DNA of 64,000 nucleotides from positions 3,810,450-3,874,449 of the forward strand of contig NC_014962.1 of assembly GCF_000186345.1 (NCBI RefSeq), given 5' to 3'. Below are positions 13,189 to 17,252 of this stretch, piece after piece. The notes below the pieces were generated by a model. That model ran no database searches, was not told the origin of the DNA, and was given only the letters and a program-made list of their open reading frames with translations. Each line of letters opens with the position of its first letter. The first letter of the stretch is position 1. The DNA comes from Isosphaera pallida ATCC 43644. Lineage in GTDB: Bacteria > Planctomycetota > Planctomycetia > Isosphaerales > Isosphaeraceae. Both the position numbers and the translations under genes were made by a program.

Positions 13189-15024
13189 TTAGGGTAGCAC
13201 CAACGAACGGTTCAGGACGCCTCCTTTTTGGGATTCGAAGCGGAGGCGGAGTTCCGAACCGGCCGGGGCTTGCACGATCCAACGCGCGTGAATAGCTCCC
13301 AGACCAGGCACGCCACGCGCGAAGCGAACCACCCGTGGTTCGGGACGCACGCCGGAGGCAAGGTCGTCTTGGTCCAGCGCGGCGGTGGAGTCGGCTCCAA
13401 GGGTCAAACCAGCATCGGGATTGACGAGTTCCCCGCCGTCGAGGATGGTGGCGGCATCGCCCATGAGGGACAACCGGTCAGGTAGGTTCAGTTTGTGGCG
13501 GGCGGCCTGGGCGGTGATGGTAGGGATGCGTCGGGTGTTGCGCACCGAGGCGTCGATTTGATAGACCTCGCCGCCCAGCGGGGTGGCCTCGACCTTGAGC
13601 CATTCGGGCCGGGGCATCTGATCGGCGTGAAAAATCACAAAGGCCGCGTTGCGGTGCGAGCCTTGTTCCAGCAGGAACGGCGGGGGAATCCGTTGCGACT
13701 CTTTGACGAAGCCGCCGATTTCGATGTCGCCCAGAGTCGGATGACGGAACGGCGTCCAGTCCTTGAAGGTCGCGCCGTGGAGCAAACGATCGGCGGCGAA
13801 GAGGTCGTCGTTGGGTTTGGCCTGGCCAGGGGCGGTGCCAAGCAGTTCGTTGGAACTCCACAACTCGTTGGTGAATGAAACAATCCCAAGATTCTCGTAA
13901 GTCCAGGTGATGAAGCCTCCGTGGACCGTGTAGAGGTCTTTTTCGATGACGAGGTTGCGGTAGAACGGCAGCAAGCGGACCCCTTCCTCGCCAATTCCCC
14001 GAATCATCCGTTCGTCCTCGGCGGGATACTGGGGGGCGCGGTCGGGGTGGCCAGGACCGCGCAGGATCATGCCGCCGGCGTTGTGGAACGATTGGACCCC
14101 GGCGATGTGTGGACGGTTCTTGATGAACTCCGCCACCGCGCGGGTCTCGGGCCAGCAAAGCGGGAAGGGTCCCGCCCCGCGCTGTACCGTCTCGGGCCGC
14201 CAGTCGGAGGGATAGTTGCGGTTCATGTCGTAACCGCCAGGGAGGTCTTCATTGATTTGGCCGTCGCCGTCGTTGTCCAATCCTTCAAAGCCGAGCAACT
14301 CGTACTCGCCGAACTCTCCGGGAGGAGCCAATTCCATCCGCCGGGGATCGTCGCTCGCGGCGCGGTAGCGGCCCACCGGGCTGCGCCGCCGCATCTGCCG
14401 AATCTGACCATCACCATCAAGATCTTGATATGTATCCTCATCGATTCGCCCATCCCGGTCGTCGTCTTGGGGGGCTTTACCTGAGCGCGACGAGTTGGTG
14501 GTGTTGGGACCGTTGAACCACCAGGCCCGGCCGTCGGGGTTGACTGTCGGCAGAACGTAGAAGACCCGTTCATCCACCAATTGACGGATTTGGGGAAGGC
14601 GATCGTAGTTCTCGGTCAAATACCAGATGAGATAAAGACAGGCTTCCGAGGTTTGAACTTCGTTACCATGCACGTTGGCGTCCACGTAGAAGGCGGGTTT
14701 GGTTTTGGGGTCACCGGTTTTAGGGTTGGCGATGGTGACACACCACAAGTCGCGGCCCTCGACGCTTTTGCCGATGGACTCCATCGTGAGCAGGTCGGGG
14801 TGGGCGGCGACCAACCGCCGCATCGCCTCGACCAACTCCGGCTCGTCGTACAACCGATTGAACGCCAACTCCACCTTGGGAGCCCGGTACACGGCGTTGT
14901 CGGGAATCCGCGCCGGGGACGATCCTGGTTGGGGATTGAGCTCCTGAGCCTCGGCTCGACCGATCGGCAAAGCGAGCGACATTCCCACACCGACCGCAAT
15001 CAACCATCGGCGAAACGTCATCAT
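13189..15024 (-). CDS. Exported M14-family zinc carboxypeptidase
   Basis: A 611-residue metallopeptidase with an N-terminal signal peptide (WLIAVGVGMSLALPIGRAEA, cleavage after AEA likely). The zinc site is complete: DANVHGNEVQTSE gives HxxE, and GVQSFHNAGG gives the third His. SFTNELW holds the probable catalytic Glu. Two Asp-rich stretches (DDDRDGRIDED with DLDGDGQI, and LDNDGDGQINED) resemble calcium-binding DxDxDG loops and are inserted in the catalytic domain. The last ~170 residues form a beta-rich domain beginning near HPTLGDIEIGGF. It probably trims C-terminal residues from peptides or cell-wall material outside the cytoplasm. The upstream paralogue is its tandem duplicate. Confidence 0.9.
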   Translation of the reverse strand: MMTFRRWLIAVGVGMSLALPIGRAEAQELNPQPGSSPARIPDNAVYRAPKVELAFNRLYDEPELVEAMRRLVAAHPDLLTMESIGKSVEGRDLWCVTIANPKTGDPKTKPAFYVDANVHGNEVQTSEACLYLIWYLTENYDRLPQIRQLVDERVFYVLPTVNPDGRAWWFNGPNTTNSSRSGKAPQDDDRDGRIDEDTYQDLDGDGQIRQMRRRSPVGRYRAASDDPRRMELAPPGEFGEYELLGFEGLDNDGDGQINEDLPGGYDMNRNYPSDWRPETVQRGAGPFPLCWPETRAVAEFIKNRPHIAGVQSFHNAGGMILRGPGHPDRAPQYPAEDERMIRGIGEEGVRLLPFYRNLVIEKDLYTVHGGFITWTYENLGIVSFTNELWSSNELLGTAPGQAKPNDDLFAADRLLHGATFKDWTPFRHPTLGDIEIGGFVKESQRIPPPFLLEQGSHRNAAFVIFHADQMPRPEWLKVEATPLGGEVYQIDASVRNTRRIPTITAQAARHKLNLPDRLSLMGDAATILDGGELVNPDAGLTLGADSTAALDQDDLASGVRPEPRVVRFARGVPGLGAIHARWIVQAPAGSELRLRFESQKGGVLNRSLVLP

Positions 15025-15170
15025 GGCCGCGATTCCATTCCAAATCAGCAGATATGAGAAAATGTAACTTCATCCCGACGGTGAGGCCTGGCCGGGGCGG
15101 GAATTGGCGTTGGCTGGGTGGGCACGCAACTGACTGCTGGTTAGCCGGTCTCATCCGACTTCCTTTACGT

Positions 15171-17252
15171 TTACTTGTGTTTTCGCTGGAGCGGGCGAAC
15201 GACCACGCCGGCTTGGGGGTGGAAGACGACCAAGCGGGCCTGATCGACGGCGACTGGCGGCGGGACCAAGAGGGTCCATCGCAGGACTTTTGAGCCGCCC
15301 GACCCTTCGAGCCGCTCGAGCGATTCGTTGGCTCGGCCCACCAGCACTCGGATGTCCTGGGGCAGTTCGAGACGAACGAGGACCGGATGAGCAGTCCGGT
15401 TGGCCAATCCCCGCGCGGTGGCAGTAGGCCACTGGCCGAGGTTGGCGATCGTCGCTTCCACGGTGTGGATGGGTCCGCCGCGATGCGTAACCTCCAGCTG
15501 GGTCACCGCCAGACGCGGTGGTTTGCGGGTCACTTCGCAGAGCATCGCCCAATGGACCTCGGCGATCGCCTCGATCTGATCGGCAGGGGGATTGAGCAAC
15601 ACGCCTGGCAGCCAACCGCCGATCTCCACGGAACCCAAGGTCGGATGCTCAAACGGGGTGAAGGGTTTGAAGGCGCGGCCGTTCATGACCTGATCGTTCC
15701 AACGCAGCGCGTTGAGGGTGGGGTTCGTCTTGAGGTCGTCGGCATCAACTCCCGGTGGTTCGGGACCGCTCCAAAGTCGTGATCCGAAGGCGACCAGGCC
15801 GCGTTGCTTTTCGAGCCATTCTAGAGGGTGACCGTCGGTTGGGGGCGGGGGGATTGGACCTTGGCCCACCACCGGAGCGGGGCGGGAAAGGGTTGGTTCG
15901 GCCTTGGGTTGGTTGAGGGTTGGATTCGCGGCGTCTTGAGGTTGATTTTCATCTTGAACCGGTTGGGCCAGGTCGCGTCGGGGTTCTTCGAGCCGCGCAG
16001 GTTGGACGGCCGGATCGCTCGGCTTGTCGTTCGGTTCGACGGGATGGGGCGGAGCCAACACCACCGCGACGGCGTTGCGTTTGACAGGCTGATCGGAATG
16101 GTCGGCGGGGGAGGTGGTGGGATCGTGGGGCGTGCTTTGACTCTCCTTCTGATTCTGATCATCCTTGGAGGGCTTGGGTTTGGGGTCGAGACCAGCGAGG
16201 CGGCGATAGAGTTGGGTCAGGTCGGCGTAGAGGGGACGATCGCCGTCGAGCGGTCCAGCGGCCCCGGTGGGTGGTTCGTCGCGGAGGGTGTCGCGGAGGC
16301 CGAAGAGCCAGACCGCGACGAGTTCGGGATGATCGGCCACGAATCGGAGCATCACCAGGCTTTCCGGCTCGCTGCCAGGAGCCCAACCGGCCTCGGGATC
16401 GAACTCGGACCAATCCTGGGGAAAGTTGCGGGCCAGGTGGACGCCGTCCTCGGGGTCTTCATAGAGTCGTCCATCACCGTCGTTGTCGATCCCTTCGACC
16501 AGTTCCAGAAACACGCCTCGTTCCGCCTTGGCGGGGTCGGCGGGTCGGGAGCCTCGGGCGTCCTCTTCGAGCGGGATGCGGCCGCGTCCCACCGCGGTTC
16601 CAGCGGGCAGAGGACGCCTCATGGTCAGGATCAAGCCATCGCCGTCGAGATCCTCGGGGCCATCTTCGGCGAATTGGCCGTCGCGGTCGCGGTCGAGAGG
16701 CCGTAGGTTGGCCCTCACCACGCGCCGCGGGGTGCCAAAGAGTCGTTCAGCGGCGTCGGGATTGAGTTGGGGCAAAACATAAACCACCACCCGCTCGCGG
16801 ATTTGGAGGGCCGCCTCGTCGTCGCCGCTGAGGCGTTCGATCAGTTTGAGGGCGACTTGACAGCCCACCAGGTGATCGCCTTCCAGTCCTGCCGCGATTA
16901 AGACGCCAGGCTTGGCGGGCCGACGGGCGTCATTCGCCCTCAGGTTGGGGTCGGGACGCTCCAACGCCGCAACATCCTGCGTGATGGTCACCAGCCAAAT
17001 CGGGCGACGCTCCAGACTGGTTCCCACCTGGGTCAGTTGGAGGCAGTCGCTACGGACAGCAGCGAGCTCGCGCAGTGTCTTCCCGAACGTTTCGGGGTCA
17101 TCGTACCCTTCGGGAAACACAGGGGGCGGCTCGTTGAGGGCCGCCGAGACCCAGGCGGCGTTCCCCGCCGTTGTTGGAATGGTTCCCATTCCAAGCCAGA
17201 AGAACACGACTCCGCCTATCCATCCGACTCGTCGTTGTTTGATCGTGACCAC
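15171..17252 (-). CDS. M14 carboxypeptidase paralogue, probably catalytically inactive
   Basis: A 693-residue exported protein with a signal peptide (VGWIGGVVFFWLGMGTIP). It is co-linear with the M14 enzyme downstream: the same two Asp-rich loops (DRDRDGQFAED, GIDNDGDGRLYED), ARNFPQDW matching NRNYPSDW, and the same C-terminal domain (HPTLGSVEIGGW). The active site is not conserved. HGNE is replaced by EGDH, the third-ligand His in QSFHNAGG is Gly in WLFGLRD, and the catalytic Glu in FTNELW is Arg in FGSRLW. A ~110-residue Pro/Asp/Gln-rich linker is inserted in the middle. It may be a binding or regulatory partner of the active paralogue (inference). The family call is sure; loss of peptidase activity is likely. 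Confidence 0.82.
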   Translation of the reverse strand: MVTIKQRRVGWIGGVVFFWLGMGTIPTTAGNAAWVSAALNEPPPVFPEGYDDPETFGKTLRELAAVRSDCLQLTQVGTSLERRPIWLVTITQDVAALERPDPNLRANDARRPAKPGVLIAAGLEGDHLVGCQVALKLIERLSGDDEAALQIRERVVVYVLPQLNPDAAERLFGTPRRVVRANLRPLDRDRDGQFAEDGPEDLDGDGLILTMRRPLPAGTAVGRGRIPLEEDARGSRPADPAKAERGVFLELVEGIDNDGDGRLYEDPEDGVHLARNFPQDWSEFDPEAGWAPGSEPESLVMLRFVADHPELVAVWLFGLRDTLRDEPPTGAAGPLDGDRPLYADLTQLYRRLAGLDPKPKPSKDDQNQKESQSTPHDPTTSPADHSDQPVKRNAVAVVLAPPHPVEPNDKPSDPAVQPARLEEPRRDLAQPVQDENQPQDAANPTLNQPKAEPTLSRPAPVVGQGPIPPPPTDGHPLEWLEKQRGLVAFGSRLWSGPEPPGVDADDLKTNPTLNALRWNDQVMNGRAFKPFTPFEHPTLGSVEIGGWLPGVLLNPPADQIEAIAEVHWAMLCEVTRKPPRLAVTQLEVTHRGGPIHTVEATIANLGQWPTATARGLANRTAHPVLVRLELPQDIRVLVGRANESLERLEGSGGSKVLRWTLLVPPPVAVDQARLVVFHPQAGVVVRPLQRKHK

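What the first reader, a model, noticed from the sequence alone, without database searches (positions are those of the whole stretch)
13189..17252. Tandem M14 carboxypeptidases, one with every catalytic position replaced
The downstream gene keeps HxxE, third His and catalytic Glu. In its upstream paralogue the aligned residues are EGDH for HGNE (ligand order swapped), Gly for the third His, and FGSRLW for FTNELW (Glu to Arg), while the Ca-like DxDxDG loops and C-terminal domain are kept. The fold appears preserved without catalysis, which suggests a pseudoenzyme that binds the same substrate or regulates its neighbour.
Basis: partly seen in the sequence, partly recalled or inferred. Interest (0 to 1): 0.5.

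Follow-up and report, generated by a model that had tools for sequence, protein, structure and literature searches.

The report
Dead-live carboxypeptidase gene pair
Two neighbouring bacterial genes encode a zinc carboxypeptidase with an intact active site and a copy that has lost its catalytic residues, and this couple has stayed together across several bacterial phyla, which suggests that the working enzyme needs its dead partner.

Summary
The window is from Isosphaera pallida (chromosome length match). Gene 15171-17252(-) has the M14 carboxypeptidase fold (predicted model, Z 32 to carboxypeptidase T) but Glu/His/Gly in place of zinc ligands His/Glu/His and Arg in place of the catalytic Glu. 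Gene 13189-15024(-), directly downstream, keeps all four.

This is not a local oddity. A profile of the ACTIVE family alone hit 59 of 244 Planctomycetota, 20 of 150 Gemmatimonadota, 31 of 197 Acidobacteriota and 39 of 392 Bacteroidota genomes. Of 152 active genes examined, 145 have a dead paralogue directly upstream; the other seven are three at contig edges, two second tandem actives, one apparent M14 of another clade, and one genome whose dead gene lies elsewhere. Of 184 complete dead sequences none keeps the four residues and 172 keep no zinc ligand; 190 of 191 actives keep all. Dead and active sequences form two groups with similar branching, which fits one ancient duplication; one within Isosphaeraceae is rejected. 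The dead genes tested are under purifying selection. No third conserved neighbour was found.

Best reading: an obligate pseudoenzyme-enzyme pair, probably an exported heteromer, the M14 counterpart of dead/live M16 pairs. Binding is inferred, not shown.

The parts
15171..17252 (-). Dead (pseudo) M14 carboxypeptidase, 693 aa, upstream gene
   Evidence: ORF; Pfam PF00246 62.5 bits; model pLDDT 81.6, Z 32.1 to carboxypeptidase T
13189..15024 (-). Active-type M14 carboxypeptidase, 611 aa, downstream gene
   Evidence: ORF; Pfam PF00246 164.6 bits; model pLDDT 83.4, Z 36.8 to carboxypeptidase T
16872..16883 (-). Dead gene: E124-G-D-H127 in place of H-x-x-E (His69/Glu72)
   Evidence: alignments
16299..16301 (-). 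Dead gene: G318 in place of third zinc ligand His196
   Evidence: alignments
15810..15812 (-). Dead gene: E481 in place of Tyr248 (Tyr in 175 of 190 dead rows)
15777..15779 (-). Dead gene: R492 in place of catalytic Glu270
16635..16694 (-). Dead gene: DRDRDG...DLDGDG Ca-like loop region
   Evidence: sequence; invariant or near-invariant Asp/Gly columns in A3
16470..16487 (-). Dead gene: DNDGDG Ca-like loop
   Evidence: sequence; conserved in A3
15861..16115 (-). Dead gene: low-confidence Pro/Lys/Glu-rich insert, residues 380-464, between the third-His and Tyr248 regions
   Evidence: pLDDT under 50; variable among relatives
14659..14670 (-). Active gene: H119-G-N-E122 zinc ligands
14083..14085 (-). 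Active gene: H314, third zinc ligand
13864..13866 (-). Active gene: E387, catalytic Glu270 equivalent
15025..15170 (.). 146-bp intergenic gap of the tandem pair

Best explanation
The two genes form an obligate pseudoenzyme-enzyme module. One ancient duplication of an exported M14 metallocarboxypeptidase gave an active copy and a copy that lost zinc binding and catalysis. The dead gene nearly always stays directly upstream of the active gene, and the two were inherited, and probably transferred, as one unit. Most likely mechanism: the dead protein is a stable subunit or activator of the active one, secreted with it, so that the peptidase folds, becomes active or selects its substrates only together with the dead subunit, as the inactive chain does in two-gene M16B peptidases. 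Shown: residue loss, predicted fold, synteny, co-occurrence, two separate groups in the tree, purifying selection. Inferred: export of both (signal-like N-termini), physical contact, and the direction of control.
For: (1) Active genes found with an active-only profile have a dead paralogue directly upstream on the same strand in 145 of 152 cases (loci; searches). (2) In Planctomycetota 59 of 59 genomes with an active-clade gene have a dead one beside it: 56 by the table; three more at contig edges, by a fragment in G066 and in G207 (this fragment does not cover the catalytic positions, the rest of a dead gene ends another contig) and by the pair running off a contig in G041. (3) In the two genomes where I found the genes unlinked away from contig edges, both are kept: G815, dead gene on another contig; the genome of L086 (G1015, Omnitrophota), dead gene without an active neighbour but an 838-bit active-clade gene on another contig. 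(4) 0 of 184 complete dead rows keep the four catalytic residues, 172 keep no zinc ligand; 190 of 191 actives keep all. (5) Dead and active groups are each one side of a branch (support 99 and 100; 93, not starred, and 100 under a mixture model; catalytic columns left out of both). Pair distances correlate, r 0.74, 0 of 2000 permutations as high. A duplication within Isosphaeraceae is rejected, AU p 3.8e-8. (6) Dead genes have dN/dS 0.03-0.44 in 26 comparisons within 8 groups. (7) M14 fold kept in the model, Z 32. (8) No third gene family recurs widely nearby. (9) Signal-like N-termini in 58 of 107 dead and 128 of 140 active proteins, against 20 of 915 internal control segments.
Against: No interaction, co-folding or activity data. 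The dead family is less conserved than the active one (mean column identity 33% against 54%) and its dN/dS is the higher of the two in 20 of 25 comparisons. Its former active site varies strongly between lineages, so a single conserved role for that site is unlikely. Synteny plus co-inheritance can also arise from shared regulation in one pathway without contact. The two unlinked cases show that adjacency is not strictly required. In one genome (G758) with the active gene at a contig edge no dead gene was found. The distance correlation partly reflects shared organism history. Many relatives are metagenome bins.
Confidence: 0.6

Rival explanations
1. The dead protein is a transient folding helper or inhibitor of the active one, doing in trans what a prodomain does in other M14A enzymes, and is not part of the working enzyme.
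For: The active protein has only about 50 residues before the catalytic domain, the first 31 of low confidence, so no prodomain is visible. The dead gene comes first in the pair.
Against: Comparable size of the two proteins suits a lasting subunit as well; no data separate the two.
Confidence: 0.2
2. The dead protein is an independent receptor that captures C-termini or peptides for the enzyme or for uptake and does not touch the enzyme.
For: Tyr248 is kept in 175 of 190 dead rows (117 of 194 active rows), and Asn144 plus Arg145 in 83 of 184 complete dead rows.
Against: The Isosphaera copy has Ala and Glu at the Asn144 and Tyr248 positions; Asn144 plus Arg145 are not both kept in 101 of 184 complete dead rows; no other gene family recurs widely beside the pair.
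Confidence: 0.12
3. The dead protein has a new enzymatic activity or metal site built from the replaced residues (Glu69, His72, Asp199, Arg270 equivalents).
For: Glu69 with His72 and Asp199 occurs together in 47 of 184 complete dead rows, and Glu, His and Asp there are invariant in the eight Isosphaeraceae sequences of A1.
Against: The residues change between lineages; no set is shared by the family; a new activity would not explain the tie to the active paralogue.
Confidence: 0.06
4. The upstream gene is a decaying or species-specific pseudogene.
For: Long branch of the Isosphaera copy (1.23, 1.01) and its extra substitutions. dN/dS was measured in other lineages, not in Isosphaera itself, for want of a close relative.
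Against: Intact ORF; syntenic across phyla; dN/dS below 1 in all 26 comparisons; AU test rejects a local origin.
Confidence: 0.02

Closest known systems
Two-gene M16B peptidases with one chain lacking the zinc motif (MPP alpha/beta; SPH2681/SPH2682; TTHA1264/TTHA1265; AlbE/AlbF)
   Same: Paralogous chains, one without the zinc motif; prokaryotic forms come from a two-gene operon (PMC11266112 section 4); TTHA1264 alone is reported as inactive and forms a heterodimer with the product of its neighbour (passages of PMC12731061)
   Different: M16 fold, not M14 (fold difference recalled); heterodimer not shown here
Eukaryotic M14 pseudopeptidases (AEBP1/ACLP, CPXM1, CPXM2, CPD domain III, Ecm14)
   Same: M14 fold with catalytic or binding residues lost
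   Different: By the review's table they change one to five of six key positions and all five keep His69; CPXM1 and Ecm14 keep all three zinc ligands. No adjacent active partner is described in what I read, though CPD domain III lies in one chain with two active domains. The bacterial clade keeps no zinc ligand in 172 of 184 rows
Carboxypeptidase T (Thermoactinomyces vulgaris), M14A
   Same: Top-ranked solved fold for both proteins
   Different: An active enzyme; I know of no dead partner (recalled)
Prozyme-AdoMetDC of Trypanosoma brucei
   Same: Catalytically dead paralogue that activates its live partner (title and start of abstract in a listing only, PMC5201418)
   Different: Decarboxylase of a eukaryote, unrelated fold (recalled)

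Membership tests
Peptidase family M14 (PF00246), dead protein | M14 sequence profile and funnelin fold | tested here: met
   62.5 bits over cut-off 21.6; 53 of 53 dead alignment members match at E 0.01; Z 32.1, 282 residues, rmsd 2.5 to carboxypeptidase T
Peptidase family M14 (PF00246), dead protein | Zinc ligands His69, Glu72, His196 | tested here: not met
   E, H, G in the window protein; 0 of 184 complete dead rows keep all
Peptidase family M14 (PF00246), dead protein | Catalytic Glu270 | tested here: not met
   Arg in the window protein; 0 of 184 complete dead rows keep Glu
Peptidase family M14 (PF00246), active protein | Zinc ligands and catalytic Glu | tested here: met
   H119, E122, H314, E387; 190 of 191 complete active rows keep all four
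M14 pseudopeptidases | M14 fold with catalytic residues lost while the gene is maintained by selection | tested here: met
   (selection measured in relatives, not in Isosphaera)
M14 pseudopeptidases | Absence of peptidase activity in the purified protein | not testable with these tools
   needs an assay
Two-gene dead/live metallopeptidase pairs (M16B kind) | Adjacent paralogous genes, one with and one without the zinc motif | tested here: met
   145 of 152 active genes
Two-gene dead/live metallopeptidase pairs (M16B kind) | M16 fold with HxxEH motif | tested here: not met
   Both proteins are M14 by profile and fold; works-like comparison only
Two-gene dead/live metallopeptidase pairs (M16B kind) | Stable active heterodimer | not testable with these tools
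   no complex prediction or binding assay available

The most novel reading that the evidence does not exclude
A clade of exported bacterial M14 carboxypeptidases, spread over several phyla, works only as a heteromer with a zinc-free paralogue; this would be the first M14 enzyme known to be built on the dead/live two-subunit plan of M16, arrived at independently in another fold.
Probability: 0.5. Interest if true: 0.75.

Novelty: new variant of a known kind. Interest (0 to 1): 0.62.

Why it matters
A 2024 review of metallopeptidase pseudoenzymes names four vertebrate M14 pseudopeptidases and one characterised yeast one, Ecm14 (passages and section 4 read); no bacterial one appears in what I read. 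A two-gene bacterial module in which the live enzyme is almost never without its dead copy gives a simple, heterologously testable system for why a dead paralogue is kept. It would also mean that M14 genes of this clade expressed alone may look inactive, and that a profile match alone (Pfam calls the dead protein a zinc carboxypeptidase) misnames the upstream gene.

Tried and rejected
Recent, species-level decay of the upstream gene: rejected by synteny, tree, AU test and dN/dS of relatives. Phage or plasmid origin: no near DNA match in plasmids and no protein match in phages. A known defence or NCBI-named family: no NCBIfam or PADLOC match for five proteins. A larger conserved operon: clustering of flanking ORFs of 56 loci put M14 genes of the pair together in 53 loci; the next groups are kinase-like ORFs (by eye) in 10 loci and ORFs antisense to the pair in 8; loci cut by contig ends limit this. 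A single-sequence scan of genome contigs found no relative; the alignment scan worked. Its 80-locus list (of 387 relatives) was chosen by patterns from the dead family, so it is biased; counts for the partnership rest on the active-only searches instead.

Literature: of ten searches of the held open-access library, eight were on this question, one on M16 pairs and one on the organism. I saw no description of a bacterial M14 dead/live pair in their listings. One search matched 408 papers and listed ten; subscription papers are not held. In the 2024 review (PMC11266112) I read the outline with abstract, found passages and section 4; in the M16 review (PMC12731061) and the I. pallida genome paper (PMC3072084) only found passages.

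Rows dropped or chosen: three hits, two active fragments and one M14 of unclear clade. In one search, ten of twenty earlier family rows were carried over beside the new ones, as most of the rest recur in L043-L048. Before the first tree, five fragments and 14 of 24 outgroup rows. The second tree uses 30 chosen pairs and 15 other rows. One search counts some genomes twice; one search counts distinct sequences. ORFs are stop-to-stop, so some include untranslated overlap, which raises dN (notably the actives of L168-L171); several dS values are near saturation.

The 11 of 40 genomes include the window's own.
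Full report
1. The observation. The chromosome is 5,472,964 bases and the genome 5,529,304 in two contigs, which equals the published Isosphaera pallida IS1B chromosome plus its 56,340-bp plasmid (passages of PMC3072084). Both proteins match Pfam Peptidase_M14 over its cut-off. Alignment with relatives and with carboxypeptidase T by profile places E124, H127, G318 and R492 of the upstream protein on His69, Glu72, His196 and Glu270 (bovine numbering, as used in PMC11266112). The downstream protein has H119, E122, H314 and E387 there. The upstream copy also has Ala for Asn144 and Glu for Tyr248, but keeps Arg145.

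2. Fold. AlphaFold2 models from alignments of 53 dead and 49 active sequences have mean pLDDT 81.6 and 83.4. The dead model matches carboxypeptidase T at Z 32.1 (282 residues, rmsd 2.5) and the active one at Z 36.8 (304 residues, rmsd 2.6). Residues 380-464 of the dead protein are a low-confidence insert.

3. Breadth, first pass. The dead protein matched 11 of 40 genomes, the window's own included. An alignment scan of genome contigs kept the best 80 of 387 loci. Of the 56 loci L043-L097 and L105, 49 hold both a dead and an active gene, in order dead then active on one strand, from Planctomycetota, Gemmatimonadota, Acidobacteriota, Verrucomicrobiota, Bacteroidota, Balneolota and records titled Aminicenantes and KSB1. 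Seven show the dead gene only: six at contig edges (L045, L049, L052, L084, L087, L089) and L086 (Omnitrophota), where unrelated genes follow. The genome of L086 has an active-clade gene (838 bits) on another contig. The other 24 loci, L098-L122 without L105, have HxxE and score as ordinary M14 enzymes. This scan used dead-family patterns and is biased towards the dead gene.

4. Breadth, active-only pass. I therefore searched with a profile of the active family (A4). Planctomycetota: 244 genomes, 71 with any match at 1e-20, 59 with an active-clade hit over 450 bits; 56 of these 59 show a paralogue directly upstream in the table. The three others are at contig edges: in G066 a dead fragment precedes the active gene; in G207 a dead-type C-terminal fragment does, with the rest of a dead gene ending another contig; in G041 the pair runs off one contig. 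Gemmatimonadota 20 of 150, Acidobacteriota 31 of 197 and Bacteroidota 39 of 392 genomes have a hit at 1e-130; the Acidobacteriota number includes G448, which looks like another clade. I fetched the surroundings of 58 of the 59 Planctomycetota loci, the 59th being the window, all 20 and all 33 hits of the next two phyla, and 40 of the 42 Bacteroidota hits; the two left out are tandem copies inside two fetched stretches. In the automatic count 145 of 152 active genes have a dead paralogue directly upstream: 56 of 57, 20 of 20, 31 of 33, 38 of 42 (G066 and the window are not in this count). The seven exceptions: L181, L220 and L239 start at contig edges; L267 and L268 are second tandem actives behind a first one that has the dead gene; L234 (G448) appears to be an M14 of another clade by its motifs and scores, not placed on a tree; L264 (G815) has no dead gene within 5 kb upstream. 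G815 carries a dead gene on another contig. G607 (L220) has a dead gene ending at the edge of another contig; in G758 (L239) none was found.

5. The reverse. In the same 244 Planctomycetota genomes the dead profile matched 66 at 1e-60. Seven of these are outside the 59: G128, G147 and G173 are HxxE-bearing M14s of other clades, G225 and G267 carry the second pair of paragraph 9, and G082 and G197 were not read. So in this set I found no plain dead-clade gene in a genome without the active gene, with two genomes unread and weaker matches not listed.

6. Residues. Over distinct sequences (200 dead, 194 active), 0 of 184 complete dead rows keep the four catalytic residues, 172 keep no zinc ligand, 12 keep one, and none keeps Glu270; 190 of 191 complete active rows keep all four (the exception is L268:499-2229). 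What replaces them varies: His69 is Glu in 102 of 190, Glu72 is His in 117 of 190, His196 is Gly in 141 of 192, Glu270 is Pro in 65 and Arg in 46 of 190. Tyr248 is kept in 175 of 190 dead rows but only 117 of 194 active rows. Asn144 and Arg145 are both kept in 83 of 184 complete dead rows. No replacement set is shared by all, which speaks against one family-wide new active site.

7. History and selection. With catalytic columns removed, dead and active rows are each one side of a branch (122 rows, support 99 and 100; 75 rows under a mixture model, 93 and 100). Distances between 30 pairs correlate (r 0.74; 0 of 2000 permutations as high; dead distances about 1.5 times longer). Forcing the Isosphaeraceae dead and active genes together is rejected (AU p 3.8e-8). 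The simplest history is one old duplication and inheritance or transfer of the pair as a unit. In 26 comparisons within 8 groups of close relatives, dN/dS of the dead gene is 0.03-0.44 and of the active gene 0.007-0.51 (one saturated); the dead value is the higher in 20 of the other 25. The dead gene is thus constrained, though usually less than the active one. Isosphaera itself had no close enough relative to test.

8. Surroundings and export. Clustering of flanking ORFs in 56 loci shows no third widely recurring gene. Signal-like N-termini occur in 58 of 107 dead and 128 of 140 active proteins against 20 of 915 internal segments. This is a simple hydrophobicity rule; about half of the dead proteins do not pass it, perhaps because the profile edge reaches into some N-termini.

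9. A second pair. In 13 genomes of one Planctomycetota family (f29) there is another dead-type M14; in 12 of these 13 it is followed by a second, weakly matching M14-like gene that also lacks the ligands (four of each were put on the tree, where both fall on the dead side). Long branches make that placement unsure.

10. Mechanism. A gene that has no catalytic residues, is constrained, almost never leaves the side of its active sister, and is kept with it in the two genomes where they were found apart, is best explained as a partner of that sister protein. The precedent is the M16B two-gene peptidases, where one chain lacks the zinc motif and the active chain needs it (passages of PMC12731061; PMC11266112 section 4). 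I put 0.6 on an obligate heteromer or lasting activator, 0.2 on a transient folding helper or inhibitor, 0.12 on an independent peptide receptor, 0.06 on a new activity and 0.02 on decay. No experiment or complex model supports the contact itself.

11. Novelty. Dead paralogues that control live ones are known, dead M14 proteins are known in eukaryotes, and dead/live two-gene peptidases are known in M16. A dead/live two-gene M14 module in bacteria did not appear in the listings of the eight searches made on it. I rate it a new variant of a known kind.

Noticed in passing
L276-L288 (Planctomycetota family f29): A second tandem in which both M14-like genes lack the catalytic residues, separate from the dead/active pair; two members in 12 of 13 genomes.
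   Followed up: partly
L264 and L301 (genome G815); L086 and L306 (genome G1015): Two genomes, one of Bacteroidota and one titled Omnitrophota, with the active and dead genes on different contigs; both genes are kept.
   Followed up: partly
L268:499-2229 and L267:3146-6653: Two active-type genes in tandem behind the dead gene; in L268 the first has Leu for the third zinc His, which may be a second loss under way.
   Followed up: no
L055, L056, L064 and other active genes of Gemmatimonadota and Acidobacteriota: Tyr248 is Asn in 34 of 194 active rows (for example WTNDGLG) while the dead partner in these three keeps Tyr; the tyrosine is better conserved in the dead family than in the active one.
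   Followed up: partly
L206:2711-4912, L235:2962-4950, L060:7860-9644, L267:1508-3156: Dead genes split into two ORFs, by one stop in the first three and by a frame change in L267, beside active genes; assembly error or real breakage not decided.
   Followed up: no
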